Shown in pieces: positions 3,401 to 37,959 of a stretch of DNA of 41,346 bases; the first letter of the stretch is position 1; every line of letters begins with the position of its first letter. Location of the stretch: assembly GCA_028749475.1 (NCBI GenBank), contig JAQVWN010000015.1, positions 1 through 41,346 of the forward strand. Reading direction: 5' to 3'. The position numbers and the translations under genes were made by a program. The notes beneath the pieces were generated by a model. It saw only the letters and a list, made by a program, of their open reading frames with translations, was not told where the DNA came from and ran no database searches. This DNA is from Thomasclavelia sp. (GTDB taxonomy: Bacteria > Bacillota_I > Bacilli_A > Erysipelotrichales > Coprobacillaceae).

Positions 3401-5331
3401 GTTATGGAACTGGAAGTAATGCTATAACTAAAACAGTTAACTTATCAGTAATCCCTGATGGAACCCCAATAGATGGAGACTTTATTATTTCTGCTGATTC
3501 AAGTTTCTTAAAACAAAGTGAAGCTAAAGCTTTAACTGATCCTGCAGATTTAATTCCAATTAATAATGCAACTGTATTATTCTATAAAACTGGAGTAAGA
3601 GTTAATCCATCAATTGCAGTACCAGATTATTCTTCAATTAAAGCTGGAACTATAGGTTCTTACCCAGCAACTTATTCTTATTCTAATCCAACAGGATCTA
3701 GATCAATTGTCGTTCAAGAAGTAGTAGTACCAGATGATTCTGAAATTAGTGATACATTTGCCCTTTATGCTCAAAATGGAGTAATGACACCTGATGAAGC
3801 TAAAAACCTAACAAGTTTAACAGGTTTAATTCCATACAATAAAGCTGTTGTATATTTACTTGATGGAACAACTACAAATCCAACTAGTATTATTGCTAGT
3901 GGATGGTCAAGTATTACGACTGGAGTAGAAGGAAGTTACAATGTAACATATGGTTATGGTAGTGGAGCAAGTGCAAAAAATAAAACTGTTAAATTAATGA
4001 TTACAAAAGGTGTTATACCACCAGACAGAAGTTTTGCATTATATGCTGAAGACGCTATTATTAGCCCAGATGAAGCAAAAGCTTTAACAAGTATAAATGA
4101 TTTAATTCCATTAAATAATGCTAAAGTAACATTCCCAGATGGAACAACTGCAAATCCATATGTATCATCAATGGATTGGTCAGCAATTAAAACTGGTCGT
4201 ACTGGTATTTATAATGTTACATATACTTATGGAACAGGAAGTAACCGAGTAAGTACAACTGTTAAATTAACTATAGCCGATGGTATTGGTACTAATTTCA
4301 AATTAAACGCTAAAAATGCAATGATCACTATTGATGAAGCAAAAGCTTTAACATCAAGAAATGATTTAGTACCTATCAATTCAGCAGTTGTAACATTAAA
4401 AGATGGATCAACAGTAACACCTTCAATAGCTGTAACAAACGCTGATTGGTTATTAATTAGTAATGGTTACACAGGAACATATAATGTAATGTATTCATAT
4501 ACATTAGGAACTGAAACACGTGATAAAACGGTTGTTGTAACTGTATATGATCCTGATGATGGAACTATTTCACCAAATAAAGACTTTGTTATTTATGCAG
4601 ATAACACAATCATTACTCAAACTGAAGCAATGGCTTTAACAGGAATGAGTGATATTAATACTTATACTCATGCTTATGTTGGTAAAGATGATGGAACAAC
4701 TGATACACCAGCTATCAGTGTACCAAGTTATGCTAGCATTAAAGCCGGAACTGTTGGTATTTATAACGTAACATACAATTATGGTACTGGAAGTGATTAT
4801 ACTTATCGTACAGTAAAACTAAGAGTAGTAGATGATGATGCTATCATTTCATTAGATAGAACATATGCTTTATATGCTCTAGATAAAACTATTGATAAAG
4901 AAGCTGCAAAACTACTTACAAATAAAGAAGAATTAATACCTTTAAATAGTGCAACAGTTTACTTATCAGATGGTACTACAGCAGTACCAACTGTAACATC
5001 TTTAGACTTTGCTGATATCCAAGCTGGAAAAGTTGGAAACCACGCAGTTACATATACATATAAAGATGTAAGCAAATCAGTAAGTTTGGCAATTAGTACA
5101 GACTATACAGAAGCGTATCTATTCGATTATAATGGAAATGGAATTATTGATGTAACAGATAAATCAGTATTTAATTACTATTTAGCTAATCCATCAGCTC
5201 AAAATGCCACAATAATCTTAATGGGTGATGCTAATGGGAATGGAACATTAGATATTGCAGATAAAGCATTACTTAATTACTATCTTGCAAATTCTAGCGT
5301 AACTCCTCCAATAGTTCAAATTCCAAACTAG
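445..5331 (+). CDS. Large secreted surface protein: C-type-lectin-like domain, 13 repeats, C-terminal dockerin
   Basis: The 1628-residue protein starts with a basic and hydrophobic signal peptide (cleavage probably after V-N-A near residue 40). Residues about 167-355 look like a C-type-lectin fold (W-E-T-A-Y, G-Y-L-A-T-I-S-N-E-S-E-N, R-N-W, final M-V-E-W). Residues about 379-1552 are 13 copies of an 86-95 residue Ig-like repeat: F-x-L-Y-A-x-D ... E-A-K-A-L-T ... D-G-T-T ... W-S-S-I-K-A-G-T-x-G-x-Y-x-V-T-Y. Residues 1555-1628 form a type I dockerin with two EF-hand-like loops, starting at D1561 (D-Y-N-G-N-G...D) and D1595 (D-A-N-G-N-G...D), each followed by an N-Y-Y-L-A helix. There is no sortase signal or membrane anchor, so attachment is probably through a cohesin partner. 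The ligand is unknown. A strong GAGGAGG site precedes the ATG. It is flanked by an IS end upstream and a long terminator downstream, and looks monocistronic. Confidence 0.85.
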   Translation: MITKHKLFKVIKKSFIVVLVFAMTFGLMQVNNASTSKVNAEETPSAKSGGLTLGSITDINHPSSMTTYQYGNATISTNPGAMEISVDNGSFQLSNIPNNLMLVKATTTGGTVASSLNTSTKYTKIQVFSTSTISNAQTVLRSITFYKNVGTVQNVSVKIDTKTLGNYGVSYNSSNGHLYKYYNSKVSWETAYGKAKETLVWGNKGYLATISNESENTFLRSVTTQGFYIGGTRRLSTFDADSYRIYSTLTNDWRWACGPEAGNMIYSGSPAAGQIWNSSQGTGYGYRYRNWFPNGYGQKDANYADSMRYGGKVEADRYASGYRNWDDVYNTFGITDDLGYRCNGYMVEWSDYNGHNFSLSQATGSDTGSASNTIDDRSSISASDGFITQTQAKALSSMNAMAPYNNASGKDSNGNIVTPTASTSNWSSIANGAVGSYNVKYTAGTQSKTVKLIVIPDGSIISPNKDFAIYAKDATIKQTAAMALTNATQLINIHSATVYKLDGTTATPNVTTSQWSDITAGDVTKSPYSVRFSYGTGTDYTYKDVSLTLDPDLKHTINADNGFIYQSQAKALSSTTQLNAYNNASAITNAGLNVTPIASTTSWASIQAGTIGSYDVTYTYGSGATQGTKTVKLTVIPDGSVISSDKKFAVYAKDTILKSSEARAIANQNQLVNTHSALVYIADGTTATPTVNVGTNWSYITSGTIGSYGIEFSYTLNTITATKTAKLTVVSDKDIINPDRTAAIHAEDASVTQSQAAALNVYTDVNTYTNAYVTLADGTRTIPVTTVVDFTTIKSGTVGTYPVQYAYGTGSNAINSSVNLTVTTEPKHIINATSGWITVSQAKALSSVNQLISYNSASVTTLGGVTTTPNVNTTSWSSIKAGVEGVYDVTYSYGTGFQEGIKTVQLHVVPDSIIISPDGDFALYADGGYIYASDAKNLTGVTDLIPYNNAFVELLDSSTRINPNVTCSSYSSIKAGIEGDYQVTYSYGTGSNAITKTVNLSVIPDGTPIDGDFIISADSSFLKQSEAKALTDPADLIPINNATVLFYKTGVRVNPSIAVPDYSSIKAGTIGSYPATYSYSNPTGSRSIVVQEVVVPDDSEISDTFALYAQNGVMTPDEAKNLTSLTGLIPYNKAVVYLLDGTTTNPTSIIASGWSSITTGVEGSYNVTYGYGSGASAKNKTVKLMITKGVIPPDRSFALYAEDAIISPDEAKALTSINDLIPLNNAKVTFPDGTTANPYVSSMDWSAIKTGRTGIYNVTYTYGTGSNRVSTTVKLTIADGIGTNFKLNAKNAMITIDEAKALTSRNDLVPINSAVVTLKDGSTVTPSIAVTNADWLLISNGYTGTYNVMYSYTLGTETRDKTVVVTVYDPDDGTISPNKDFVIYADNTIITQTEAMALTGMSDINTYTHAYVGKDDGTTDTPAISVPSYASIKAGTVGIYNVTYNYGTGSDYTYRTVKLRVVDDDAIISLDRTYALYALDKTIDKEAAKLLTNKEELIPLNSATVYLSDGTTAVPTVTSLDFADIQAGKVGNHAVTYTYKDVSKSVSLAISTDYTEAYLFDYNGNGIIDVTDKSVFNYYLANPSAQNATIILMGDANGNGTLDIADKALLNYYLANSSVTPPIVQIPN
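1579..5100 (+). repeat. Thirteen in-frame 260-285 bp repeats encoding Ig-like modules
   Basis: The repeats are clear in the protein but diverged in the DNA, so this is an old expansion and not a fresh tandem array. Modules 7, 9, 10 and 13 keep L-I-P as a central motif, while modules 3 and 6 share a K-H-x-I-N-A opening in place of the usual D-x-x-F-A-L-Y-A. This suggests that modules were duplicated in pairs or blocks. Confidence 0.8.
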
Positions 5332-10525: not shown

Positions 10526-13009
10526 ATGACTAACAAAGAAATAGTGTATGAAACACTTTTAGATTACCATGATGACTATGAAAGTACACAGTCCGGATTA
10601 ACAACAACATTTCTATCTTCAAAACTGAATATGCAAAGATCTAATGTATCTGCAATCCTTAATCAATTAGTTAAAGAAGGAAAAGTTATTAAAGGAAAAG
10701 GTCGACCTGTTGAATACTTCATTTCATCTAATTCATTGAATCAAAGAAGTAATCAATCATTCTCTTCTTTAATAGGTTATGATAAATCTTTAAATAATGT
10801 CTTAAAGGTAATTCAAGCAGCGGTTCTATATCCAGATAGTAAACCACTTATCTATATGGTAGGTGAGAGTGGATGTGGATATAATACTTTAGCCAATCTT
10901 ACAAAAGACTTTGCAATTCAAAACAACATTCTAAAAAAAGGAGCTGAAGTTATTGTTCTTGATATTTCTTATTATCAAGAAGGAGAATTAAATAAACAAT
11001 TATTGACCGACAATTATATAAAGAAAGCTGAAAATGGATTATTACTTATCAAGAACGCTAATCTATTATCCAAACAAACTCTCTTAAGACTTATAAATTA
11101 TATTTCTAATACTCCTTATAAAGAAATTGTTATGATTCAATCTAGCGAAAATAACTTAGATGATAATGGAGTAATTAATAATATAGTTTATGTACCAAAT
11201 CTTCCTGACAGAGGATTACAAGAAAGATTTGAATTAATTTGCAAGTTCTTTAAAGAAGAAGCGATAAAGATCAATCTTAAGATAGAAGTTAATTATGGTA
11301 TTATGCAAAGCTTATTATTATTTCCTACAAAGGGAAATCTTCGAGAACTTCAAGGAGTTATCAAGACTGGTATCGCTAATGCATATGCTAAAGATAAAGA
11401 AAGCAAAACTATTGTTCTTGAAATAGGTGATTTATCACCTATTGTTAGAAAAGGTTTACTCTTTGTAAGTGATAATATAGGTAGCTTAAAAGAAGTACTA
11501 GAAAACAATCAAAATTATATCTTTGATAAAGATACTGTTTATCATAATAAGATTAAAAAAGATGAAGATATCTATTCATATATTAACCATAACAAGATTA
11601 CTTCTATTAATCATATTTCAAATGAACTCCAAACCCAAATAAATGATTATCTCCATAATATCTCTAACAATATTAATGATGACATTTTAAGAAAAACAGT
11701 ACCTTCTAAATTAATTACTTTAGTAGATAATTATTTAAATGATTTATCAAGTAAATTAAAAGTAGTTTATCCAAAAGATGTAACTCATGGCTTATGTATT
11801 CATTTAAACAATATTATTAATAATAAATCTCATCGTTTAAGATTTAATAATGATTTTATCTTAGACATGATTGAAAATTATAATGATGAATATATTCAAA
11901 CAAGAAAATTCATTAGAAGTATCGAAAACGAATTTGATGTTCATATTTCTGGTGAAGAAACAGTCTTTATTCTATTAACAACAATTCTTCCCTATCAACA
12001 AGTTAATGTCAATAAAGTTGTAACGCTTGTAGTTACTCATGGTAAAACTACTGCTAGTTCCATAGTAGATACCGCCAAAAACTTACTAGGAACTAATAAT
12101 ATCTATAGTTTCGATTTGAAAATCGAAGATGATATTGATGAATCTTATAATAATTTGAAACAAAAAGTAATAAATATCAATCAAGGAAAAGGAATAATAG
12201 TTATCTATGATATGGGATCTATCAGAGTAATGATGGATTCAATCAGAGAAGAAACTAGTATTGATATTAGAGTATTCGAAATGCCTATAACCCTTTTAGC
12301 AATGTCAGCTAGTAAAATAGCTGATGATGGTAGTAACATCGATACAGTATATAATCACTTATTAGTTGAGTATTCAGATGTTTCATATAAAAGACAAAAA
12401 TCAGATAAGACAGTAATAGTTTTATCTGATAACGAAAATGACTTAAACGAAATGTATAAACAAATTCAATCAATTAATGATAATTATAATCTGGAAAAAG
12501 TACTAGGTGCTAGTAAAGAAGATGTTATTAGTAAGATTAATTCGTTACCTAAAAATGGTAAGATCGTTGGAGTAATTGGGACATATGATCCTGAAATCTT
12601 CGATGTTGAATATATAAACTATGATGATATTGACTTCAATAAAACATTAAACAATATTCTTAAAGAACAAGAGTTTGATATCTTATCTTACTTAGGCGAT
12701 CAGTTTAGTACTTTTAATAAAGAAGATGCTGCCCTTACAATTGTCCCATTAGTAAATAGACTAGAAAAAGTCTTTAAAAAGAAATTTGATGAAGATAACA
12801 AAATAGGAATTTACATTCACATTGGATGTTTAATTGATGGTTTGTTAAAGAAACAAACCCCAACAGTTAACTTCAATGCAACCTCAATAATTAATAATTA
12901 TCCTGAATATATGTCTAAAGTTAAAAAAACAATAAGACCTCTCGAACAATACTATGATATTGAAATCAGTGATGGTGACATCGCAACATTAATATCAATC
13001 ATGCTTTAA
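10526..13009 (+). CDS. LevR/ManR-like PTS-controlled regulator with a degenerate AAA+ domain
   Basis: Domain order in 827 residues: winged helix (1-68, ending L-N-M-Q-R-S-N-V-S ... G-K-G-R-P-V); AAA+-like domain (about 80-310); PRD1 (about 390-480, H421 and H426); EIIA-mannose-like domain (about 490-610, H505 in V-V-T-H-G); EIIB-like domain lacking its Cys (about 630-710); PRD2 (about 715-827, H765 in Y-I-H-I-G). LevR relatives normally activate sigma-54 polymerase. Here the Walker A lysine and Ser/Thr are replaced (G-E-S-G-C-G-Y-N), Walker B D-E is K-N (176-177), and the GAFTGA loop is missing, while the sensor II G-N-L-R-E-L remains. The protein probably controls the operon by its winged helix, with activity set by PTS phosphorylation of the conserved histidines. 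It is first in the operon, 12 bases ahead of lacF. Confidence 0.8.
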   Translation: MTNKEIVYETLLDYHDDYESTQSGLTTTFLSSKLNMQRSNVSAILNQLVKEGKVIKGKGRPVEYFISSNSLNQRSNQSFSSLIGYDKSLNNVLKVIQAAVLYPDSKPLIYMVGESGCGYNTLANLTKDFAIQNNILKKGAEVIVLDISYYQEGELNKQLLTDNYIKKAENGLLLIKNANLLSKQTLLRLINYISNTPYKEIVMIQSSENNLDDNGVINNIVYVPNLPDRGLQERFELICKFFKEEAIKINLKIEVNYGIMQSLLLFPTKGNLRELQGVIKTGIANAYAKDKESKTIVLEIGDLSPIVRKGLLFVSDNIGSLKEVLENNQNYIFDKDTVYHNKIKKDEDIYSYINHNKITSINHISNELQTQINDYLHNISNNINDDILRKTVPSKLITLVDNYLNDLSSKLKVVYPKDVTHGLCIHLNNIINNKSHRLRFNNDFILDMIENYNDEYIQTRKFIRSIENEFDVHISGEETVFILLTTILPYQQVNVNKVVTLVVTHGKTTASSIVDTAKNLLGTNNIYSFDLKIEDDIDESYNNLKQKVININQGKGIIVIYDMGSIRVMMDSIREETSIDIRVFEMPITLLAMSASKIADDGSNIDTVYNHLLVEYSDVSYKRQKSDKTVIVLSDNENDLNEMYKQIQSINDNYNLEKVLGASKEDVISKINSLPKNGKIVGVIGTYDPEIFDVEYINYDDIDFNKTLNNILKEQEFDILSYLGDQFSTFNKEDAALTIVPLVNRLEKVFKKKFDEDNKIGIYIHIGCLIDGLLKKQTPTVNFNATSIINNYPEYMSKVKKTIRPLEQYYDIEISDGDIATLISIML

Positions 13010-13021
13010 AAGGAGAAAACA

Positions 13022-13327
13022 ATGACTAGAGAAGAAGTGACTATGCTAGGATTTGAAATTGTTGCTTATTCTGGTGATGCTAGAAGTAAACTTCTAGTAG
13101 CTCTAGAAAAAGCTAAGAATAAAGAATTCGACAAAGTTGATACTCTTATCGACGAAGCACAAGATGCATTAAATGATGCACATAAAACACAAACAGAATT
13201 ATTACAACAAGAAGCACGTGGTGAAACAAGTGAAATTGGAATCATAATGGTTCATGCACAAGATCACTTAATGACTACAATGCTTTTAAAAGATATTATT
13301 AATACTTTAATCGATGTATATCGTTAA
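13022..13327 (+). CDS. lacF: PTS lactose/cellobiose-family EIIA component
   Basis: This 101-residue protein has the normal size and three-helix pattern of Lac-family EIIA. The phosphorylation site is H78 in M-V-H-A-Q-D-H-L, with the metal-binding D81 beside it. In the cytosol it takes phosphate from HPr and passes it to EIIB, here the C-terminal domain of the next gene. The order EIIA, EIICB, 6-phospho-beta-galactosidase is that of lactose operons, hence the symbol. A strong AAAAGGAG site sits in the 12-base gap after the regulator, and the next gene starts 20 bases on. Confidence 0.88.
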   Translation: MTREEVTMLGFEIVAYSGDARSKLLVALEKAKNKEFDKVDTLIDEAQDALNDAHKTQTELLQQEARGETSEIGIIMVHAQDHLMTTMLLKDIINTLIDVYR

Positions 13328-13347
13328 TAAAAGAGGGGACAAAACTA

Positions 13348-14994
13348 ATGGACACAATTATTAGAACTGTCGAGAAAGGTAAACCTTTCTTCGACAAGCT
13401 TGCTAGAAATAAGTATCTAAAAGCAATTCGTGATGGATTCTTATCAGCAATGCCAATCGTTATATTTTCAAGTATTTTCTTATTAATTGCTTATGTACCA
13501 AATATCTGGGGTTATTCATGGCCTGCAGATATCGAAGCTATCTTAATGAAACCATATAACTATTCTATGGGTATCTTAGGATTAGTTGTTGCAGCTACAA
13601 CTGCAAAGCATTTCACTGATACTTTAAATCGTGATATGCCTGAAGACAATCAATTAAATTCAATTTCAACTATGATTGCTGCTATGGTAGGATTCTTACT
13701 ACTTTCATCAGATGCAATTAAAGATGGATTTGGATCAGGTTTAATGGGTTCTAAAGGATTACTTACAGCCTTTATTTCAGCATTCATTGTTGGGGCTTTT
13801 TATAAATTCTTTGTATCTAGAAACATAACTATCAAAATGCCTGAAGAAGTACCACCAAATATTTCTCAAACATTTAAAGATGTTATTCCATTCTCAGTTG
13901 CAATCGTATTCTTCTGGTTATTTGATTTAGTATTTAGAAATGCCTTTGGATTCTGTTTTGCACAAGGAGTTATCTCAGTATTCCAACCAATATTCTCAGC
14001 TGCTGATGGATATCTTGGTTTAGCTATAATTTATGGAGCTATGTCATTATTCTGGTTTGTAGGTGTTCATGGACCATCAATCGTAGAACCAGCAATCTCT
14101 GCTGCTTTACTACTTGGTATGTCTGAAAACTTATCTGCAGTTCAATCAGGAGCACACGCTACTCATGTATTATCACTTGGTTCTCAATATTTCGTTGTTT
14201 GTCTAGGTGGTACCGGAGCTACTCTAGTAGCCTGCTTTATGTTCGCTTTCTTAGCTAAATCTAAACAATTAAAAGCTATTGGTAAAGCTTCATGTATTCC
14301 AGTTTTATTCAATGTAAATGAACCATTCTTATTTGGTGCACCAATGGTATTAAACCCAGTATTCTTTGTACCATTTGTATTTACACCAATCTTAAACATT
14401 TGGGCATTTAAAATATTTGTTGATTTCCTTGGTATGGATGGATTTATCTATACACTTCCTTGGACTACACCAGGTCCACTTGGAATTATCCTTGCATGTG
14501 GAATTAAATTATTACCAATTATCTTTACAGTCTTTGTTCTTGCTCTAGACTTTGTATGTTACTATCCATTCTTTAAAGTATATGACCAAGAAAAACTAGC
14601 TGAAGAAGCTGAAAACGGATTAGAAGATGTAGATAAAGAAGAAGCAGCAATTGAAATTGATGCTGACACTTTAAAGAGTAAAAGAGTACTTGTATTATGT
14701 GCAGGTGGAGGAACTTCTGGTTTACTTGCTAATGCCCTTAAGAAAGGTGCTAAAGAAAAAGGAATTAATCTAATTGCAGCTGCCGGAAGTTATGGTGCTC
14801 ATATGGATATTATGAAAGATTATGATCTTGTTGTATTAGCTCCACAAGTTGCTAGTCAATATGAAGATCTTAAAAAAGATACTGATCGTTTAGGTATTAA
14901 AGCTGTTGCTTGTGAAGGTAAACAATATATTGAATTAACTCGTGATCCTAAAAAGGCTCTAGAATTTGTATTTAGTGTTTTAGAAGGAGAATAA
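13348..14994 (+). CDS. lacE: PTS lactose-specific EIICB (membrane permease with fused EIIB)
   Basis: The 548-residue protein has a hydrophobic EIIC domain (residues 1 to about 415, around 10 membrane segments, with substrate-region motifs such as F-N-V-N-E-P and G-V-H-G-P), an acidic linker (about 415-442) and an EIIB domain. EIIB shows V-L-C-A-G-G-G-T-S-G with the phosphorylated cysteine C451. Fusion of EIIC and EIIB in one chain is characteristic of the lactose branch; cellobiose systems usually keep them separate. It carries lactose across the membrane and phosphorylates it at the galactose 6-position. The downstream gene lacG starts 3 bases after the stop, showing tight coupling. Confidence 0.88.
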   Translation: MDTIIRTVEKGKPFFDKLARNKYLKAIRDGFLSAMPIVIFSSIFLLIAYVPNIWGYSWPADIEAILMKPYNYSMGILGLVVAATTAKHFTDTLNRDMPEDNQLNSISTMIAAMVGFLLLSSDAIKDGFGSGLMGSKGLLTAFISAFIVGAFYKFFVSRNITIKMPEEVPPNISQTFKDVIPFSVAIVFFWLFDLVFRNAFGFCFAQGVISVFQPIFSAADGYLGLAIIYGAMSLFWFVGVHGPSIVEPAISAALLLGMSENLSAVQSGAHATHVLSLGSQYFVVCLGGTGATLVACFMFAFLAKSKQLKAIGKASCIPVLFNVNEPFLFGAPMVLNPVFFVPFVFTPILNIWAFKIFVDFLGMDGFIYTLPWTTPGPLGIILACGIKLLPIIFTVFVLALDFVCYYPFFKVYDQEKLAEEAENGLEDVDKEEAAIEIDADTLKSKRVLVLCAGGGTSGLLANALKKGAKEKGINLIAAAGSYGAHMDIMKDYDLVVLAPQVASQYEDLKKDTDRLGIKAVACEGKQYIELTRDPKKALEFVFSVLEGE

Positions 14995-14997
14995 GTA

Positions 14998-16398
14998 ATG
15001 AAATTTAAAGACGATTTCATATTTGGAGGGGCTACCGCCGCATATCAATGCGAAGGTAGCACCAAAGAATATGGTAAAGGAAAAGTTGCGTGGGATGATT
15101 TCTTAGATAAAAAAGGTTTATTTAAAGGTGATCCTGCAAGTGATTTTTACCATCAATATCCAGTGGATTTAAAACTATGTCATGATTTCCATATTAATGG
15201 AATCAGAATTTCTATAGCTTGGACTAGAATATTTCCTGATGGAGATGGTAAAATTAATCAAGAAGGTGTTGATTACTATCATCGAGTATTTAAGGAATGT
15301 AGAAAGAATGGGGTCGAACCATTTGTTACATTACATCACTTTGATACTCCCAATAAGTACTACCAAAATGGTGATTTCTTAAATAGAGATACAGTTGATG
15401 CTTTCGTTGAATATGCTAAGTTCTGTTTTGAAGAATATAAAGATGAAGTAACTTATTGGTTTACTTTCAATGAAATATGGGCAGTAGCTACTAACATCTA
15501 TATTGAAGGTCAATGGCCTTGTGGTGATAAGGCTAATATGGATAAAGCATTCCATTGTATGCACAACATGCAAGTTGCACATGCAAGAGCTGTTGTTGCA
15601 TATAAAGAAAAAGGATATAAAGGAAAGATTGGAGTTGTTCAATCTTTAGAAAGTAAATATCCTTATAATGAAAATAGTGAATTAGATATCAAAGCTGCTA
15701 AAAACGAAGATGTTTTAGAAAATCAATTTGTTTTAGATGCAACATTTAATGGAGAATATTCAAAAGAAACATTAGAGATTGTAGATAAACTAGTAGCTTT
15801 AAATGGAGGAACATTTAAAGCTAGTGATGAAGATATTGCCGTAATGAAAAAAGCAGCTAAATTAAATGACTATTTAGGAATGAATTATTATCAAAGTCGT
15901 TTTATTCAACATTATGAAGGAGAAAATCTTCTTAATTTCAACTCAACAGGTGAAAAAGGAAGTTCAAGATTCGCTTTAAAAGGTGTTGGAGAACGAATGG
16001 ATAAAGAAGGAATAGATAAAACTGATTGGGATTGGCTAATCTATCCTGAAGGAATGTATGATATGATTATGCGTATCAAGAAACAATATCCTAACTATCA
16101 TAAAATATATATTACTGAAAATGGTATGGGATATAAAGATGTATTTAAAGATGGAAATATCGATGATACTCCTCGTATTGATTACATTAAAAGACATTTA
16201 GAATGGCTTTTAAAATCTCAAGAAGATGGAGCTTGCATTGGTGGATATTTTGTTTGGTCATTAATGGATCTATTTAGTTGGAATAATGGTTATAACAAAC
16301 GTTATGGTTTATTCTATGTAGATTATAAAACTCAAAAAAGATATCCTAAAAAGTCTGCATACTGGTATAAGGATGTAGCAATAAAAAAGGAGTTATAA
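14998..16398 (+). CDS. lacG: 6-phospho-beta-galactosidase, glycoside hydrolase family 1
   Basis: The 466-residue length matches LacG (about 468). Features shared with LacG are F-I-F-G-G-A-T-A-A-Y-Q at the N terminus, D-F-Y-H-Q-Y-P-V-D, H-H-F-D-T-P, the acid/base E159 in T-F-N-E, the nucleophile E374 in I-T-E-N-G, and the phosphate-binding end K-K-S-A-Y-W-Y-K. It hydrolyses lactose-6-phosphate to glucose and galactose-6-phosphate in the cytosol. GAAGGAG lies in the end of lacE. Compared with the two other GH1 genes in the window, only this one shows the LacG-type N terminus and W-D-W-L-I-Y-P-E-G segment. Confidence 0.9.
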   Translation: MKFKDDFIFGGATAAYQCEGSTKEYGKGKVAWDDFLDKKGLFKGDPASDFYHQYPVDLKLCHDFHINGIRISIAWTRIFPDGDGKINQEGVDYYHRVFKECRKNGVEPFVTLHHFDTPNKYYQNGDFLNRDTVDAFVEYAKFCFEEYKDEVTYWFTFNEIWAVATNIYIEGQWPCGDKANMDKAFHCMHNMQVAHARAVVAYKEKGYKGKIGVVQSLESKYPYNENSELDIKAAKNEDVLENQFVLDATFNGEYSKETLEIVDKLVALNGGTFKASDEDIAVMKKAAKLNDYLGMNYYQSRFIQHYEGENLLNFNSTGEKGSSRFALKGVGERMDKEGIDKTDWDWLIYPEGMYDMIMRIKKQYPNYHKIYITENGMGYKDVFKDGNIDDTPRIDYIKRHLEWLLKSQEDGACIGGYFVWSLMDLFSWNNGYNKRYGLFYVDYKTQKRYPKKSAYWYKDVAIKKEL

Positions 16399-16399
16399 A

Positions 16400-17053
16400 A
16401 TGATAAACAATTTAAAAGGAGTAATATTTGATTTTAATGGGACACTTTTCTTTGATAATGATAAACATGTCAAAGCCTGGGGCGCTATTAGCAATCAAAT
16501 AAGAGGACATGGAATATCACAGAACGAACTTCATAGTAAGTTTAATGGTGTTCCCAATAATGAAATTATTAAGTATATGAAACCTGATGCTACGACAGAA
16601 GATTTAAAAAAGTATTCATCTTTAAAAGAAGAATACTATCGTAAATTTTGTTTTGAAGATAAACCTTCATTTCATTTAGTTAAAGGTAGTGAACAATACT
16701 TTGATAAATTAACTCAAGAAAAAATTCCTTTTACAATTGCTTCTGCTTCCATAAAGCCAAACATTGATTTCTTTATTGAATCATTTAATCTAGATCATTG
16801 GATTAAACCAGAAAATATCATTTATGATGATGGTTCATATGATAATAAAGTTAAAATGTTTAAAGAAGCAGCTAAGGTAATTAATTGTGATTTAAAAGAT
16901 ATTTTAATAATAGAAGATTCAGTTAGCGGTATTAAAAATGCTTATAAGGCTGGATGTCAAAATATTATTGTTGTTGATTCGGCAAATAAAAAAGATGAAT
17001 ATCAAAAATTGCCTGGGGTCATCAAGGTGATTAATGATTTCACTCAAATATAA
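16400..17053 (+). CDS. HAD-superfamily hydrolase, beta-phosphoglucomutase/phosphatase-like
   Basis: The 217-residue protein begins one base after lacG and is the last gene of the lactose operon (AAGGAG site inside lacG). It has HAD subfamily IA layout: motif I F-D-F-N-G-T near 10-15, a helical cap, S-A-S near 113-115, and I-E-D-S-V-S-G-I near 173-180. The second aspartate of the usual D-x-D is Asn here, seen in a subset of sugar-operon HAD proteins. That residue is the general acid in mutases and phosphatases, so turnover may differ from the classical enzymes. Context suggests a sugar-phosphate substrate such as a side product of the lactose route, but this is inference. Confidence 0.75.
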   Translation: MINNLKGVIFDFNGTLFFDNDKHVKAWGAISNQIRGHGISQNELHSKFNGVPNNEIIKYMKPDATTEDLKKYSSLKEEYYRKFCFEDKPSFHLVKGSEQYFDKLTQEKIPFTIASASIKPNIDFFIESFNLDHWIKPENIIYDDGSYDNKVKMFKEAAKVINCDLKDILIIEDSVSGIKNAYKAGCQNIIVVDSANKKDEYQKLPGVIKVINDFTQI

Positions 17054-17054
17054 A

Positions 17055-17098
17055 AAGAACTAGTGATAAGGATAAACCTTATTACTAGTCTTTTTTTT
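17055..17098. terminator. Bidirectional terminator between the lactose operon and the surface protein gene
   Basis: ACTAGTGATAAGG pairs with CCTTATTACTAGT around a 5-base loop, with a single mismatch. A T-run follows on the plus strand and TTCTTTTTAT on the minus strand, so it can stop both converging transcripts. Confidence 0.88.
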
Positions 17099-18464
17099 AG
17101 TTAAACTTTTTTCTTAAGAAAGTAATCATTACTAATGAACTCATTAGTAATGCTGGTAAATAGTTTGAAGCATTATCGCCAGTACTTACTATATCTTTTG
17201 TTTCGTTACTGCTTATAGCATTAGTTGATTCATTACTACTTGAACCATTAACTGTATTATTAATTACTACATTATTTGTATCTTTATCATTTGTAATTTC
17301 ACCAGTAGTGCCAGCGTTTTCTGAAGGTGTTGTTGGTTCAACGTATTTTTCTTCAAAGACAGCTGCAATAACTACATTGTTTTCAATTCTAATTGCTTGA
17401 CCAGCTTTATCAATGATAAATGAAGAAGCTTCAACATTACTGCTTTTCTTATTTAAAGGATAATAATTTGTTTGACCATCTTCATATTCAAAATTATATC
17501 CAACTAAAGTATATTCATAATTAGGTTGAGCTAAACTTGATGGATACTCAACATCAGTAGGTAAATTATCAACATCTAGGTAAACTGCTCCATTATCTGA
17601 TAATACTTCTTTTATTAATGAACCATCAACATTTTGAATAGTTGCTTTATATTCAGGAATAGTTACAACTTTTTCATATACAGGAACAATTGTTACATCA
17701 TCACTAATCTTGATAGTTTCATTTAAATCACTAACAGTTCCATCACTATATTGAACTTCAAAACCTTTAAAGTTATATTCAGTATTATCTTCAGCTTTAT
17801 CAACTGGATAAGCAATTTCGTTTATTGTTGAAGGATCAATTGTAAGAACGCCTTTAACTGATTCAATAGTAGCTACTATATTACCATCAAGGTCTTTAAT
17901 AGTTGCTGTATGTTTATCATCTTCTAATTTAGGAGTGAAAGGTGAAAAAGTAGTTCCTGTTGCATTAACAACTACATAATCAATTTTATTTAATGTACTA
18001 GTTTTGAATGTTACATTATTTGAATAACTATAAGTATTTGAAACTACATCATATTTAACTCCCTTAAGAGAAGCGTTAACATCAGTAATTTTTCCATAAG
18101 TTACATATATTTGAAGGTTTGCAGTTGTTTTACCTGTTTTAGTAAAATAAATTCTAAAACCATAATTACTATAGTTAATAGTATCTAAATAATCATTAAC
18201 ATCTTGACCAATACCAGAAAAGCCATTTCCTCTTGGTGCTGCTGAATCAACAGATCCAGTTCCTGATCTAGAATTGATGTAAGTACGTAGTGCAGATGAT
18301 TCATTAGAATATAAATTATATATTTCATTTGAAACACGAGCACACATATCATATTCTGTGTTATTTCCATTATCTTCTGTAGCCATAACAGAATTGAATG
18401 AGTTAAAACTAAATGCAGTTGCAAGTGCCAACATTGCAACAAATACTTTCATGATTTTTTTCAT
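17097..18464 (-). CDS. Secreted, cell-wall-anchored protein of unknown function
   Basis: The 455-residue protein has a signal peptide (M-K-K-I-M-K-V-F-V-A..., cleavage probably near residue 29 after V-M-A). The middle part contains similar beta-rich segments, each with the pattern Y-x-A-T-I-x-(N/D)-x-D-G followed by a V-D-(K/N)-L/A...Y-P turn, resembling repeat modules of Gram-positive surface proteins. A Ser/Asn/Thr-rich spacer follows, then I-V-S-T-G-D-N-A, a hydrophobic stretch and L-R-K-K-F-N at the end. That tail looks like a sortase signal in which the usual L-P-x-T-G is degenerate (V-S-T-G-D), so a class of sortase other than SrtA is possible. No enzyme motif is recognised. It lies alone between the lactose and galactose loci; GGGGAATC-type leader sequence gives only a weak ribosome binding site. 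Confidence 0.7.
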   Translation of the reverse strand: MKKIMKVFVAMLALATAFSFNSFNSVMATEDNGNNTEYDMCARVSNEIYNLYSNESSALRTYINSRSGTGSVDSAAPRGNGFSGIGQDVNDYLDTINYSNYGFRIYFTKTGKTTANLQIYVTYGKITDVNASLKGVKYDVVSNTYSYSNNVTFKTSTLNKIDYVVVNATGTTFSPFTPKLEDDKHTATIKDLDGNIVATIESVKGVLTIDPSTINEIAYPVDKAEDNTEYNFKGFEVQYSDGTVSDLNETIKISDDVTIVPVYEKVVTIPEYKATIQNVDGSLIKEVLSDNGAVYLDVDNLPTDVEYPSSLAQPNYEYTLVGYNFEYEDGQTNYYPLNKKSSNVEASSFIIDKAGQAIRIENNVVIAAVFEEKYVEPTTPSENAGTTGEITNDKDTNNVVINNTVNGSSSNESTNAISSNETKDIVSTGDNASNYLPALLMSSLVMITFLRKKFN

Positions 18465-18608: not shown

Positions 18609-18629
18609 AAAAAAGCCCGAAGGCTTTAT
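18609..18629 (-). terminator. Terminator of the galE-galR transcript
   Basis: On the minus strand AAAGCC-TTC-GGGCTTT is followed by a T-run. The stem overlaps the stop codon of the regulator gene. Confidence 0.8.
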
Positions 18630-19609
18630 TTACAAGATTCTCTTTCCATTAAGGTACATGGAATAATCATTTGAATCGGAATACTACTTTCTTCAAGCAA
18701 TGTATAGACTATTTTGGCAGCATATTCTCCCATTAAATGAGTGGGGGCGTGCATACTTGTAAGAGGTGGATTGGTATAGCTAACATCAGCGATATCATCA
18801 AAAGATATTATTGATATATCTTTTGGAACATTGATATTGTGTTCTTTTAATGCTCGCATAGCTCCAATAGCTATCGGATCTGATGCACAAACAATTGCTG
18901 AAGGTAATCTACCAGTATTAATTAGATCGTTCATCATAGTATAACCAGATTCTCTCGTATAACTATCACTATAGATGTATCCTTTATAATCAATCTTATT
19001 TTCTTTACAATTATTAAGATAAGTAATATATCTTTCATCTTGGTATTCAGTTTCATCACTTAAGAATTCTTTACCACCAAGATAGCCAATAGATTTATGA
19101 CCAAGCTTAATTAAATAATTCATCATATCATTAATAGCTGATTTAAAGTCTAAAGAAATAGTAGAATATTTAATTGGACTATTTTTCATATCCACAAAAA
19201 CAATCCTTTTAGTAATATTTGCTAGTGAATCCATTTCATCATTAGAAAACTTACCAATACATATTAAACCATTTACATCTTTTAATGTTTCTTGGTAATT
19301 ACCATCACTTTTAAATACTCTAATAATATTTATGTTATCTTTAGAACAAAATTTTTCAACACCCATTCTAATAGATAAGTAATAAGGATCATCTAATTCT
19401 TGTTCTAAAGAATACCACTGTAAGATACCAATAGTAAAAAGGGATTTATTCTTTTTGGATTTCTTTATATACCCCAACTTTTTACAGGCTTCATTAATAG
19501 CTTCACGAGTACTATCAGGAAGAGAAAGAGTAGGGTCACCATTTAAAACTCTAGAAACAGTTGTACTAGATACATTAGCTTCATTTGCGACATCTTTTAA
19601 AGTTGCCAA
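18626..19609 (-). CDS. galR: LacI/GalR-family transcriptional repressor of the galactose locus
   Basis: The 327-residue protein has the LacI-family headpiece (A-T-L-K-D-V-A-N-E-A-N-V-S-S-T-T-V-S-R-V-L-N) and hinge near 50-58, followed by a periplasmic-binding-protein-like sensor domain (G-Y-L-G-G, I-V-C-A-S-D-P-I-A-I-G-A, I-S-F-D-D-I). Such proteins bind palindromic operators as dimers and release on binding a sugar. It lies directly downstream of galE on the same strand with a 35-base gap, so the pair is co-transcribed and the likely targets are the boxes between galE and galT. The galR name rests on this context and on similarity to the family; the inducer is presumably galactose. It starts at ATG 19609 after a GGAGGGA site. 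Confidence 0.8.
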   Translation of the reverse strand: MATLKDVANEANVSSTTVSRVLNGDPTLSLPDSTREAINEACKKLGYIKKSKKNKSLFTIGILQWYSLEQELDDPYYLSIRMGVEKFCSKDNINIIRVFKSDGNYQETLKDVNGLICIGKFSNDEMDSLANITKRIVFVDMKNSPIKYSTISLDFKSAINDMMNYLIKLGHKSIGYLGGKEFLSDETEYQDERYITYLNNCKENKIDYKGYIYSDSYTRESGYTMMNDLINTGRLPSAIVCASDPIAIGAMRALKEHNINVPKDISIISFDDIADVSYTNPPLTSMHAPTHLMGEYAAKIVYTLLEESSIPIQMIIPCTLMERESCK

Positions 19610-19644: not shown

Positions 19645-20619
19645 TTAATTATTATTTGTATAGAAATTCCAAGCTGTTCTAATAATCTCTTTAACATCAG
19701 TGTACTTAGGTTCCCAACCAAGAACTCGTTGAGCCTTAGAATTATTAGCGATAAGTTTAGCTGGATCACCAGCTCTTCTTGGAGCTATTTCCATTTTGAT
19801 TTCTTTACCAGTTACTTCTCTTGCAGCTTCAATTATTTCTTTAACACTATAACCTTCACCATTACCTAAGTTAAAGGTGTTAGAAGGGTTACCTTCTTTT
19901 AAGTGTTTTAACGCTCTAATATGAGCATCAGCTAAATCACAAACGTGAATGTAATCTCTGATACAAGTTCCATCTTTAGTATCATAATCATCTCCAAAGA
20001 CCATAATCTTTTCTCTAATACCTAAAGGTACTTGTAAAATAAGAGGAATTAAGTGAGTTTCAGGATCATGAAGTTCACCAATCTTACCATTTGGATGAGC
20101 CCCACAAGCATTAAGGTATCTAAGAGCCACAAAACTCATACCATAAGCTACTGAACACCATTTCATCATCTTTTCCATTGTAAGTTTTGTTTCACCATAA
20201 GGATTAGTAGGGACTGTCTCATCTTCTTCACTGATAGGGACTCTTTTAGGTTCTCCATATGTTGCAGCTGTAGAAGAGAAAACAATGTGTTTGACATTAT
20301 GTTTATGCATAACCTCTAATAAACAAATCATTCCATAAACATTGTTGTCATAATATTCTAATGGTTCTTTCATGCTTACTCCAACAAGAGAGTTTGCGCA
20401 AAAATGAATAACACCTTCAATGTTTTCTTTGTCAAAAACATTATTTAGGAATTCTTTATCTCTAACATCACCTTCATAAAACTTTGCTTGAGGATGAATA
20501 AGTCTTTTAAAACCTGTTTGAAGGTTATCGACTATTACTACTTCTTCTCCTCGATTAATTAATTCATAAACCATGTGGCTACCAATATATCCGGCTCCAC
20601 CTAATACTAATATTGCCAT
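19645..20619 (-). CDS. galE: UDP-glucose 4-epimerase
   Basis: The 324-residue short-chain dehydrogenase-type protein has the NAD-binding G-G-A-G-Y-I-G (7-13), the S-S-T-A-A-T-Y segment (115-121) and the catalytic Y141-x-x-x-K145 in Y-G-E-T-K. Length and the D-P-A-K-L-I end region match GalE. It interconverts UDP-galactose and UDP-glucose in the cytosol, completing the Leloir pathway and supplying UDP-galactose for cell-surface glycans. It is divergent from galT and followed by galR. Its promoter is TTGACA-17-TACTAT with a regulator box in the spacer. Confidence 0.93.
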   Translation of the reverse strand: MAILVLGGAGYIGSHMVYELINRGEEVVIVDNLQTGFKRLIHPQAKFYEGDVRDKEFLNNVFDKENIEGVIHFCANSLVGVSMKEPLEYYDNNVYGMICLLEVMHKHNVKHIVFSSTAATYGEPKRVPISEEDETVPTNPYGETKLTMEKMMKWCSVAYGMSFVALRYLNACGAHPNGKIGELHDPETHLIPLILQVPLGIREKIMVFGDDYDTKDGTCIRDYIHVCDLADAHIRALKHLKEGNPSNTFNLGNGEGYSVKEIIEAAREVTGKEIKMEIAPRRAGDPAKLIANNSKAQRVLGWEPKYTDVKEIIRTAWNFYTNNN

Positions 20620-20632
20620 ATTAACACCTTCC

Positions 20633-20730
20633 TTTACTAAAACTATAGTAAATCTTTAGTAAAACTATGTCAATATAATTAGTAAAATAAATTAAAAAGT
20701 TTAGTAAATATATTGACTATGTTTACTAAA
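20633..20730. promoter_or_regulatory. Array of five TTTA(G/C)TAAA boxes at 22-23 bp spacing
   Basis: TTTACTAAA at 20633-20641, TTTAGTAAA at 20655-20663, ATTAGTAAA (one mismatch) at 20678-20686, TTTAGTAAA at 20700-20708 and TTTACTAAA at 20722-20730. Each 9-mer is itself palindromic apart from its central base. Centre-to-centre distances are 22, 23, 22 and 22 bases, close to two helical turns, so all boxes face the same side of the DNA. Boxes 2 and 5 lie in the spacers of the galE and galT promoters; boxes 3 and 4 lie just upstream of their -35 hexamers. Probable GalR operators. Confidence 0.75.
20645..20673 (-). promoter_or_regulatory. galE promoter
   Basis: On the minus strand TTGACA (20668-20673), 17-base spacer, TACTAT (20645-20650). 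A regulator box fills the spacer. Confidence 0.75.
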
Positions 20731-20740
20731 GTAGTATTAT
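20713..20740 (+). promoter_or_regulatory. galT-galM-galK promoter
   Basis: TTGACT (20713-20718), 16-base spacer, TATTAT (20735-20740). A regulator box fills the spacer. The AAGGAG ribosome binding site of galT begins only a few bases after the expected transcription start, so the leader is very short. Confidence 0.75.
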
Positions 20741-20760: not shown

Positions 20761-22239
20761 ATGAATAAAAGTATTAATGAATTAATTAAGTTTGGATTAG
20801 ATAAAAATTTAATCACTAAAGATGATGTTATTTATTCAGTAAATTTATTATTAGATTTATTTGGATTAGATGACTTCCACGAGGAAGAAGTAAAACTTAG
20901 AAGTAATAATGAAATCTTAGATGACATGCTAGAGTGGGCAGTAAGTAATAACCTTATTGAAGATAGTATTACTCAAAAAGATTTATTTGATACTAGAATC
21001 ATGAATTGTATCATGCCTCGTCCAAGCGAAGTCATAAAGACATTTAATGATCTATATAATAAGGATAGTAAAGAAGCGACAGATTATTTCTATAATTTAT
21101 CAATTGCTTCTAACTATATTAGAAAAAGTAGAACTGATAAAAACATTAAATTCAATCATTTCTATAAGTATGGTGATATTCAAATATCTATCAACTTATC
21201 AAAACCGGAAAAAGACCCTAAAGAAATCGCAAAAGCTAAAACTATTAAATCAAGTGGTTATCCAAAATGTTTACTATGTAAAGAAAATGTTGGTTTTGCT
21301 GGAAGTCTAAATCATCCAGCTAGACAAACTCATCGTATTATTCCAATTACCTTAAATAATGATCAATATTATTTTCAATATTCACCATATGTTTATTACA
21401 ATGAACATTGCATTATTTTCAATGATGAACATAAACCAATGGTAATTAATGAAGATACATTTAAACACTTATTTAGTTTTATTGATAAATTCCCTCATTA
21501 TATGCTTGGTAGTAATGCTGATTTACCAATTGTTGGTGGTTCAATTCTTACTCATGATCACTATCAAGGAGGTCGTCATCACTTCCCAATTGAAGATGCA
21601 AAAGTAATTAAAACATATAAATTAAATGGTTATAATTGTCAGGTTGACATGGTTGAATGGCCTCTTTCAACAATTAGACTTACTGGTAAGTCTTCTGAGG
21701 AATTAATTAAACTATCTACTAAAATATTAAATAAATGGATTGATTATAGTGATGAAAGCTTAGATATTATTTCACATAGTAATTCTACTAGACATAATAC
21801 CATCACTCCAATAGCTAGAATGAAAGATGGATTATATCAAATTGATTTAGTCTTAAGAAATAATCGAACAAATGATAAGTATCCAGATGGTATCTTCCAT
21901 CCTCACAAGGAAAACCATCATATCAAAAAAGAAAATATTGGCTTAATTGAAGTTATGGGATTAGCTGTTTTACCAGCTCGTCTTAAAGATGAACTTAAAC
22001 TTTTAAAAGATTGTTTATTAGATAAAGATAAATTATCAAATCATGAATGCTTAGAAAAGCATACTGATTGGTTTAATTATTTAAAGTCATTAGATATTAA
22101 TAAGGATAATATTGATGAAGTAATAGAAATAGAAGTAACTAAAAAATTCGTATCAGTCTTAGAAAACGCTGGGGTTTATAAGATGGATGAGAAAGGAAAA
22201 GCAGGCTTTAATAAGTTTGTTGAATCGTTAAATGATTAA
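20761..22239 (+). CDS. galT: Galactose-1-phosphate uridylyltransferase, class II (Firmicutes type)
   Basis: The 492-residue length and the motif G-G-S-I-L-T-H-D-H-Y-Q-G-G (about 259-271) mark the second class of GalT, found in Gram-positives and unlike the 350-residue enterobacterial form. The histidine cluster carries the uridylylated residue. It exchanges UMP between UDP-glucose and galactose-1-phosphate. It heads the operon galT-galM-galK, preceded by AAGGAG, and overlaps galM by 8 bases, indicating translational coupling. Two cysteines in C-L-L-C near 161-164 may be structural. Confidence 0.92.
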   Translation: MNKSINELIKFGLDKNLITKDDVIYSVNLLLDLFGLDDFHEEEVKLRSNNEILDDMLEWAVSNNLIEDSITQKDLFDTRIMNCIMPRPSEVIKTFNDLYNKDSKEATDYFYNLSIASNYIRKSRTDKNIKFNHFYKYGDIQISINLSKPEKDPKEIAKAKTIKSSGYPKCLLCKENVGFAGSLNHPARQTHRIIPITLNNDQYYFQYSPYVYYNEHCIIFNDEHKPMVINEDTFKHLFSFIDKFPHYMLGSNADLPIVGGSILTHDHYQGGRHHFPIEDAKVIKTYKLNGYNCQVDMVEWPLSTIRLTGKSSEELIKLSTKILNKWIDYSDESLDIISHSNSTRHNTITPIARMKDGLYQIDLVLRNNRTNDKYPDGIFHPHKENHHIKKENIGLIEVMGLAVLPARLKDELKLLKDCLLDKDKLSNHECLEKHTDWFNYLKSLDINKDNIDEVIEIEVTKKFVSVLENAGVYKMDEKGKAGFNKFVESLND

Positions 22240-23239
22240 AGTAATTAAAGATATTGATGAAAATATTAAATTAATCTCTTTATCATCAAAAAAGTTAGAA
22301 GTTGTAGTATCCAACTATGGAGCAACCATTGTGAAAGTATTACTAGATGATAAAGATGGAATCAAAAGAGATGTTGTCCTAGGGTATGATGATTTTTCTA
22401 AATATCAAACTTTAGATGCCTGTCTTGGAGCATGTGTTGGTCGAGTAGCTAATCGAATTGGAAAAGCAACCTTTACTCTAGATGGGGTTAAATATGATTT
22501 AGTAGCCAATAATGGTCCTAACTGTATTCATGGGGGAATTAAAGGATTTGCTTATCAAATCTTTGACTATGCAATTGATAATAATCGTTTAATTCTAACT
22601 TATATTTCTAAAGATAATGAAGAAGGTTTCCCTGGAGAAATGGTTTTTAAAGTAATTTATGAAGTTGTAGGTGATACTTTAAGAACTGAATATCTAGCAA
22701 CAAGTACCAAAGATACTTTAATAAATATTACTAATCATTCATATTTCAATTTATCTGGTAAACCAGAAATAATTGATGATCATATTTTAGAAGTAAAAGC
22801 ATCTAAATTTGCTTATGTTGATAATGATGGATTACCTACTGGTGAAATAAAGGATGTAACTAATACTCCTTTTGATTTTAGAAAACCAACTAGAATAGGT
22901 GATCAAATTCATAAGTCTCATCCTCAACTTACTATTGGTAAAGGATTTGATCATCCTTTCATCTTTGATGAAAAAGAAAATCAAGTTACTTTATATAATA
23001 AGGATACGGGAATTGAATTAATCGTTTCTACTTCTTTACCTCAAGCTCAAATATATACAGCTAACTATCTTGATGGTCGGGTAGGAAAGTATAACGATAC
23101 TTATCCAGCAAGAAGTGCAGTTTGTATTGAAACTCAAAACATGCCAGATGACATTCATCTAGCTAATAAACCTAAAACAATATTAAAGAAAGGAAAAGTA
23201 TATAATGAATATACATCATATACTTTTAAAACAAGATAA
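22232..23239 (+). CDS. galM: Aldose 1-epimerase (galactose mutarotase)
   Basis: The 335-residue protein shows the GalM signature: G-A-C-V-G-R-V-A-N-R-I near 68-78, C-I-H-G-G near 94, N-H-S-Y-F-N-L near 169-175 with the catalytic histidine, and the C-terminal C-I-E-T-Q-N-M-P with the catalytic glutamate. It converts beta- to alpha-galactose, the form used by GalK. The start overlaps the end of galT and its stop overlaps the start of galK by one base (TAATG), so the three genes are read as one unit. Confidence 0.92.
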   Translation: MIKVIKDIDENIKLISLSSKKLEVVVSNYGATIVKVLLDDKDGIKRDVVLGYDDFSKYQTLDACLGACVGRVANRIGKATFTLDGVKYDLVANNGPNCIHGGIKGFAYQIFDYAIDNNRLILTYISKDNEEGFPGEMVFKVIYEVVGDTLRTEYLATSTKDTLINITNHSYFNLSGKPEIIDDHILEVKASKFAYVDNDGLPTGEIKDVTNTPFDFRKPTRIGDQIHKSHPQLTIGKGFDHPFIFDEKENQVTLYNKDTGIELIVSTSLPQAQIYTANYLDGRVGKYNDTYPARSAVCIETQNMPDDIHLANKPKTILKKGKVYNEYTSYTFKTR

Positions 23240-24513
23240 TGAAAGCTACTACATTAATAGAAGAATTTAAAAATAAGAAACATGATAAATTATTACAAGA
23301 TTTATATTTAGATGAATCTTTAATTAGTTATCAAAATCAAAGATATATCCAAGCCTTAAATAAATTTATAGAATTATATGGTGATTTAGATATTGAAATG
23401 TATACGACAGCTGGAAGAAGTGAAGTTGGAGGAAACCATACTGATCACCAACATGGTTGTGTCCTTGCTGCTTCAATTAATTTAGATGCAATTGCTGTTG
23501 TTGCACCTCAAAAAGATAAAGTAAAAGTTCTATCAGATGATTTTGATATTAAAGAAATTGATGTTAATAAATTAGATAAAATCAGTGAAGAAGAAGGAAC
23601 TTCTGAAGCTTTAATTAAAGGAGTATTACATAAATTAAAAGAAAATGGTCACAAAGTAGATGGATTTAAAGCCTTTATTACTAGTGATGTTTTAATGGGA
23701 GCTGGTCTTTCATCTTCAGCTGCTTTTGAAGGAATTATTGGGACTATTGAAGATGGTCTTTATAATAATATGGATATCGATATGGTTGAAATAGCTAAGA
23801 TTGGTCAATATGCTGAAAATGTTTATTTTGGAAAACCATGTGGATTAATGGACCAATGTGCATGTGCTGTTGGTGGTTTAATTAGTATTGATTTTAATGA
23901 TCCAACAAAACCAATTGTTAATAGTGTTAATGTTGATTTCTCTAAATTCAATCATTCTTTATGTATTGTTGATACTAAAGGTTCACATGCTGATTTAACT
24001 GGAGAATATGCTGCTGTTCCTAAAGAAATGAAAGATGTTGCTAAATTCTTTAATAAAGAAGTTCTTAGAGAAGTCGATGAAAAAGAATTTTATGATAAAC
24101 TTCCTGAAGTAAGAAAAGCTTTAGGTGATCGTCCAGTTCTTCGAGCAATTCATTTCTTTAATGAAAATAAACGAGTTGGTAAACAAGTTGCTGCTCTTCA
24201 AGCAGGAGACTTTAATAAGTTTAAATCTTTAATCAAAGAATCTGGTGATTCTTCATATAAATATCTTCAAAATGTTTATGCTAACTGTGATGTAAATAAT
24301 CAATCAGTATCAATAGCACTTGCCATGAGTGATGTTATTTTAGGTAGTCATGGAGTTAGTCGTGTTCATGGTGGCGGATTTGCTGGAACTATCCAAGCAT
24401 TTGTAGAAGATGAATATGTAGATACTTACAAAACTCAAATTGAAAAAGTATTTGGTAAAGATTCTTGTCATGTATTAAAAGTAACTGCCCAAGGTGGAAA
24501 GAAAATATTTTAA
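23239..24513 (+). CDS. galK: Galactokinase (GHMP kinase family)
   Basis: The 424-residue protein has the galactokinase motif in the variant form A-G-R-S-E-V-G-G-N-H-T-D-H-Q-H-G (58-73), the ATP-binding L-M-G-A-G-L-S-S-S-A-A near 151-161 and the third GHMP motif H-G-G-G-F-A-G-T near 376-383. It phosphorylates alpha-galactose at carbon 1 using ATP. It is about 30 residues longer than E. coli GalK, typical for this Gram-positive branch with G-G-N-H-T-D in place of G-E-H-T-D. It is the last gene of the operon and is followed by a strong terminator. Confidence 0.92.
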   Translation: MKATTLIEEFKNKKHDKLLQDLYLDESLISYQNQRYIQALNKFIELYGDLDIEMYTTAGRSEVGGNHTDHQHGCVLAASINLDAIAVVAPQKDKVKVLSDDFDIKEIDVNKLDKISEEEGTSEALIKGVLHKLKENGHKVDGFKAFITSDVLMGAGLSSSAAFEGIIGTIEDGLYNNMDIDMVEIAKIGQYAENVYFGKPCGLMDQCACAVGGLISIDFNDPTKPIVNSVNVDFSKFNHSLCIVDTKGSHADLTGEYAAVPKEMKDVAKFFNKEVLREVDEKEFYDKLPEVRKALGDRPVLRAIHFFNENKRVGKQVAALQAGDFNKFKSLIKESGDSSYKYLQNVYANCDVNNQSVSIALAMSDVILGSHGVSRVHGGGFAGTIQAFVEDEYVDTYKTQIEKVFGKDSCHVLKVTAQGGKKIF

Positions 24514-37727: not shown

Positions 37728-37959
37728 ATAAATACCACCTTTTTTTATATTGTAGCATTAATAATCTTTATTTTTAAATAACTATATTAATTATTGCTAC
37801 TTGCGTTATTTTTACTAAAAACTAATTTATATATATCTAGTTTACTGCTTATTTCAAATTATCTTGATTCTAACGATATTTTTTGTCGTTTAAAAAGCCA
37901 AAAATCTTTTAACAGATACTCAAATATGTTAGAATGAAACACGGAGAAAGGAAGATAAT

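What the first reader, a model, noticed from the sequence alone, without database searches (positions are those of the whole stretch)
20633..20730. Five regulator boxes on one face of the DNA across the galE/galT divergent promoter
Five copies of TTTA(G/C)TAAA (one with a single mismatch) are spaced 22, 23, 22 and 22 bases centre to centre. One box lies in each promoter spacer, one just upstream of each -35, and one at the galE start region. LacI-family repressors normally use one or two operators; a regular ladder of short palindromes at two-turn spacing suggests cooperative or filament-like binding that shuts both promoters together.
Basis: partly seen in the sequence, partly recalled or inferred. 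Interest (0 to 1): 0.72.

Follow-up and report, generated by a model that had tools for sequence, protein, structure and literature searches.

The report
Phased GalR operators between divergent galactose promoters
Between two back-to-back galactose-use promoters lie five copies of a known sugar-regulator binding site spaced two DNA turns apart; relatives keep the same spacing, so it is a real cooperative control array, built from known parts but unusually long.

Summary
Five TTTASTAAA boxes (four exact, one with a single mismatch) stand 22, 23, 22 and 22 bp apart between galE and galT. In 20,000 shuffles of the region none gave more than two exact boxes or a ladder longer than two. The box is not new: it is the published odd-length operator of "EbgR-like" LacI-family regulators (streptococcal GalR, lactobacillar LacR/GalR). 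The regulator at 18626-19609 belongs to that subfamily and is the only such protein found in its genome. Paired boxes occur in 17 of 49 relatives with an orthologue and 0 of 49 without. Across 316 genomes of the order, three-rung ladders occur in 8, all at gal promoters. At 25 gal promoters the boxes fall mainly at -54, -32, -10 and +13 from the -35 hexamer; boxes around galR genes recur every ~11.2 bp. Most likely GalR dimers bind side by side, cooperatively, and control both promoters together. Cooperative LacI-family pairs at 22 bp and groups of up to four sites were already published; five is one more. Nothing shows a filament, and repression versus activation is undecided.

The parts
20633..20641 (.). 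box 1, TTTACTAAA, at the expected galE transcription start, just upstream of its ribosome-binding site; not seen in the relatives compared
20644..20652 (.). one-mismatch box TATAGTAAA overlapping the galE -10, 11 bp from boxes 1 and 2; may be only the -10 element
20655..20663 (.). box 2, TTTAGTAAA, in the galE promoter spacer; an exact box in all 7 divergent regions compared
20645..20673 (-). galE promoter: -35 TTGACA (20673-20668), -10 TACTAT (20650-20645)
20678..20686 (.). box 3, ATTAGTAAA (one mismatch), just upstream of the galE -35
20700..20708 (.). box 4, TTTAGTAAA, just upstream of the galT -35; register kept in 19 of 25 gal promoters
20713..20740 (+). galT promoter: -35 TTGACT (20713-20718), -10 TATTAT (20735-20740)
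20722..20730 (.). box 5, TTTACTAAA, in the galT promoter spacer; register kept in 11 of 25 gal promoters
19645..20619 (-). galE, UDP-glucose 4-epimerase
   Evidence: TIGR01179, 437 bits, cutoff 262
18626..19609 (-). galR, EbgR-like LacI-family regulator, downstream of galE
20761..22239 (+). galT, hexose-1-phosphate uridylyltransferase
22232..23239 (+). galM, aldose 1-epimerase
23239..24513 (+). galK, galactokinase-like (below NCBIfam cutoffs; both Pfam galactokinase/GHMP models pass)

Best explanation
The boxes are operators of the linked EbgR-like GalR. Each TTTASTAAA is one odd-length palindrome that holds one GalR dimer. The ladder is two copies of a promoter module (box, -35, box in the spacer) set back to back with a gap that is itself 22 bp, plus one extra box at the galE start. 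Dimers two turns apart touch their neighbours and bind cooperatively, so galE-galR and galT-galM-galK are switched together and galR regulates itself. Because boxes lie in both spacers and at the galE start, the main output here is probably repression without galactose, relieved by galactose or a derivative. Shown: the boxes, spacing, promoters, subfamily of the regulator, conservation of register, co-occurrence with the regulator. Inferred: that this protein binds them, cooperativity, direction of control, inducer.
For: Published operators of EbgR-like regulators are TTTASTAAA with a single central G/C, coinciding with loss of the hinge Ala/Leu (PMC2329647). This protein has the subfamily insertion and no hinge Leu and its best NCBIfam model is EbgR (235 bits, below the 330 cutoff); the other three LacI-family proteins found in the genome have ordinary hinges (AARSLR, FAQSLK, IARGLA). 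Paired boxes in 17/49 relatives with an orthologue and 0/49 without, Fisher p 2.8e-6. Three-rung ladders in 8 of 316 genomes of the order, none with the reversed control pattern, all at gal promoters. Relatives with the same gene order keep the register: 23,23,22; 22,21,23; 22,22. Boxes are 91% identical between these regions, the central gap 46%. Distances between boxes in homology-found loci peak near 11, 22, 34, 44 and 56 bp; best period 11.2, R 0.65, versus 0.25 for the control motif. Ladders also precede galT where no divergent gene lies upstream (G018, G005), so back-to-back promoters are not the cause of the phase.
Against: No binding or expression data. Many relatives have only one or two boxes, so the full array is not essential. 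The spacer box, the classic repressor position, is missing at several galT promoters. Relatives are not independent, and promoter geometry may favour some positions.
Confidence: 0.74

Rival explanations
1. Activation array: GalR dimers upstream of each -35 (about -46, -68, -90 from the start) help RNA polymerase when galactose is present, and the spacer and start boxes only give negative feedback.
For: The rung just upstream of the -35 is the most conserved (19 of 25; spacer rung 11 of 25) and in G018, G005, G021, G004 and G035 the rungs at the galT promoter all lie upstream of the -35. Pneumococcal GalR is titled an activator of galKT (reference) and S. thermophilus GalR is described as activator and autoregulator.
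Against: In the window boxes fill both spacers and the galE start, positions that block polymerase. Most LacI-family regulators repress. Both -35 and -10 hexamers are near consensus (10 of 12 matches each), so the promoters need little help.
Confidence: 0.17
2. Independent operators: each promoter simply has a box on either side of its -35, and the regular ladder follows from promoter geometry, without contacts between dimers.
For: The -10 and +13 positions are fixed relative to the -35; dimers at separate sites could each block polymerase.
Against: The 22-bp step also holds where no -35 lies between boxes (-32 to -10, and -54 to -32 upstream of one-way galT promoters), and distances elsewhere follow an 11-bp period.
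Confidence: 0.07
3. The boxes serve a different regulator, or are an AT-rich coincidence.
For: Direct binding is untested; AT-rich DNA contains many near-matches.
Against: Shuffle test, co-occurrence with the GalR orthologue, restriction of ladders to gal promoters, and published operators of the subfamily.
Confidence: 0.02

Closest known systems
GalR operators of Streptococcus mutans and S. thermophilus, LacR operators O1/O2 of Lactobacillus delbrueckii (EbgR-like LacI-family regulators; Francke et al. 2008, PMC2329647)
   Same: Same 9-bp odd palindrome TTTASTAAA, same regulator subfamily lacking the hinge Leu, same gal/lac targets; two operators listed for S. mutans GalR and L. delbrueckii LacR
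   Different: Two operators listed there, five here; spacing of those operators was not checked here
Tandem LacI-family sites at 13, 22 and 32 bp (Ravcheev et al. 2014, PMC4052901)
   Same: 22-bp pairs read as cooperative binding of two dimers; groups of three (116 operons) and four (5 operons) sites reported; GalR, LacR and EbgR named as odd palindromes
   Different: Five sites here, and the same register kept over two divergent promoters in several genera; the common period here is nearer 11.2 bp
E. coli EbgR / ebgR-ebgA
   Same: Same subfamily (32% identity to the window protein); two exact TTTASTAAA boxes upstream of ebgA
   Different: Only two, one turn (12 bp) apart
E. coli GalR/GalS at the gal operon
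   Same: LacI-family control of the gal genes, cooperative over several operators (background knowledge; review PMC4693257 found, not read)
   Different: E. coli GalR uses even palindromes with a central CG and distant operators joined by a loop (background knowledge); here adjacent odd boxes
NrdR paired boxes
   Same: Repression depends on helix phase between two boxes (PMC12051234)
   Different: Unrelated protein family; box spacing 15-16 or 25-26 bp

Membership tests
LacI/GalR family | N-terminal LacI helix-turn-helix and periplasmic-binding-protein-like core | tested here: met
   PF00356 51.8 bits and PF13377 125 bits, both above cutoff; full-length profile match to PurR, CcpA and LacI structures
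EbgR-like LacI subfamily (Francke 2008) | No conserved Ala/Leu in the hinge helix; insertion before helix 3 | tested here: met
   Sequence GDPTLSLPDSTR and hinge YIKKSKKNKSLF; shared by orthologues and aligned with E. coli EbgR; published criterion
EbgR-like LacI subfamily (Francke 2008) | Operator TTTASTAAA with a single central G/C | tested here: met
   Four exact copies and one with a mismatch; operators listed. Binding itself not tested
NCBIfam EbgR equivalog | Score above the curated cutoff | tested here: not met
   235 bits, cutoff 330: not EbgR itself, only its subfamily
Cooperative tandem LacI-family operators | Sites spaced by whole helical turns, conserved in relatives | tested here: met
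Cooperative tandem LacI-family operators | Cooperative binding shown with protein | not testable with these tools
   Needs footprints or titrations
LacI-type DNA-looping tetramer | C-terminal tetramerisation helix | tested here: not met
   The profile aligns to LacI 5-329 of 360 residues and the protein ends there

The most novel reading that the evidence does not exclude
GalR forms a short contiguous protein array over about 100 bp that occupies both promoters as one unit, giving a very steep joint switch, with the same array activating or repressing depending on galactose.
Probability: 0.15. Interest if true: 0.55.

Novelty: new member of a known kind. Interest (0 to 1): 0.34.

Why it matters
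It gives a natural series (one to five rungs, half and full turns, with and without spacer boxes, across genera) in which to measure how cooperativity and operator position set the response of a sugar switch in gut Firmicutes. The mean period of about 11.2 bp also bears on the helical repeat that matters inside cells. The parts themselves (box, regulator subfamily, 22-bp pairs) were known.

Tried and rejected
Two- and one-mismatch pair searches of the genome for more GalR targets: two-mismatch hits are no more frequent than with the reversed control pattern, so no wider regulon is claimed. The pair in G085 lies inside a coding ORF and the three-rung hit in G591 sits in a short tandem repeat: treated as chance. 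Strong RNA folding of the intergenic (z -5.9) reflects the mirror-like divergent promoters, not an RNA element. A coincidence of two promoters facing apart was rejected because ladders also precede galT with no divergent gene. Loci found by the pair pattern were left out of the period test, as they would bias it. No paper on spacing of the streptococcal operators was read. A pfam call on two relatives' loci failed because the coordinates contained stops.

Full report
Observation. The intergenic between galE (19645-20619, minus) and galT (20761-22239, plus) holds TTTASTAAA at 20633, 20655, 20700 and 20722 and ATTAGTAAA at 20678, steps 22, 23, 22, 22. A sixth near-copy (20644) overlaps the galE -10. 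Both promoters are near consensus: galE TTGACA-17-TACTAT, galT TTGACT-16-TATTAT. One box is in each spacer, one just upstream of each -35, and box 1 sits at the expected galE start. Single near-matches are as frequent in the window as expected by chance, but in 20,000 shuffles of the 141-bp region none had more than two exact boxes or a ladder longer than two. It is the only exact or one-mismatch pair found in the genome.

Identity of the box and regulator. The protein at 18626-19609 is a LacI-family regulator of the EbgR-like subfamily: it has the subfamily insertion and lacks the hinge Ala/Leu. Francke et al. 2008 (PMC2329647) defined this subfamily and listed its operators: TTTASTAAA, with a single central G or C instead of CG, for S. 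thermophilus and S. mutans GalR and L. delbrueckii LacR. The other three LacI-family proteins found in this genome have ordinary hinges. E. coli has two exact boxes 12 bp apart between ebgR and ebgA. So the site type was already known.

Co-occurrence. In 98 relatives, exact pairs with N12-14 occur in 17 of the 49 with a GalR orthologue (E at most 1e-60) and in none of the 49 without (Fisher p 2.8e-6). Most pairs lie next to galR or gal genes; one (G085) is inside a coding ORF and probably chance. Three-rung ladders were sought in 316 genomes of the order: 8 genomes match, the reversed control pattern none, and all 8 sit at gal promoters (contexts). An even sample of 392 genomes of the phylum added one hit, a tandem repeat.

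Register. Relatives with the same galE/galT divergence keep the rungs: G065 23,23,22; G011 22,21,23 (plus an extra box between); G035 and G004 22,22. In 7 such regions the three boxes from the galE spacer to just upstream of the galT -35 are 91% identical while the central gap is 46%. Measured from the -35 of 25 gal promoters, window included, boxes cluster at -54 (12), -32 (13), -10 (19) and +13 (11), with half-step positions at -44 (7) and -21 (6). In 70 loci found by homology, not by the pattern, distances between boxes have a best period of 11.2 bp (R 0.65; control motif 0.25). The same 11 or 22 bp steps appear beside EbgR-like regulators in other families of the class. G018 and G005 keep three rungs upstream of galT with no divergent gene, so the phase is not a by-product of facing promoters.

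Mechanism. The most likely reading is cooperative binding of neighbouring GalR dimers, one per box, coordinating galE-galR and galT-galM-galK. The protein lacks LacI's C-terminal tetramerisation helix, so contacts between adjacent dimers are more likely than LacI-type looping. Repression fits the window best (boxes in both spacers and at the galE start), but the most conserved rung lies just upstream of the -35, and streptococcal GalR proteins are reported as activators too, so activation or a dual role remains open. 'One face of the DNA' is true only at about 11.1 bp per turn, close to the period measured across relatives.

Novelty. Ravcheev et al. 2014 (PMC4052901) already reported LacI-family inter-site peaks at 13, 22 and 32 bp, read the latter two as cooperative binding of two dimers, and counted groups of three (116 operons) and four (5 operons). 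The window adds a five-site case and a register conserved across genera: a long member of a known kind.

Limits. All evidence is sequence. Relatives are not independent, orthology was set by an E-value cut, promoters were called by consensus, and the galE start is inferred.

Noticed in passing
window 10526-17053: A DagR-like PTS-type regulator, lactose/cellobiose PTS EIICB, 6-phospho-beta-galactosidase and a HAD hydrolase lie upstream of the gal cluster on the + strand: a lactose PTS route next to the Leloir route.
   Followed up: partly
window 17097-18464 (-): A 455-aa ORF downstream of galR has no match in Pfam or NCBIfam; one exact TTTAGTAAA (18138) lies inside it.
   Followed up: no
window 37811-37819: A lone exact TTTACTAAA in the intergenic 37728-37959, without a partner or clear promoter; probably chance.
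   Followed up: partly
L189 4213-4265, L190 4162-4214, L191 (ladder near 4084): Three-rung ladders wholly upstream of the galT -35 and without a spacer box (G018, G005, G021), a layout that would suit activation as well as repression.
   Followed up: yes
L203, L208, L209, L210, L214 near 1500 or 2500: In other families of the class the boxes beside EbgR-like regulators are often 11 bp apart (one turn) rather than 22.
   Followed up: partly
L034/L035/L037/L040/L041 1501-1531: Upstream of galR in several genera, two exact boxes 22 bp apart, suggesting autoregulation with the same spacing even where galR is not next to galE.
   Followed up: partly
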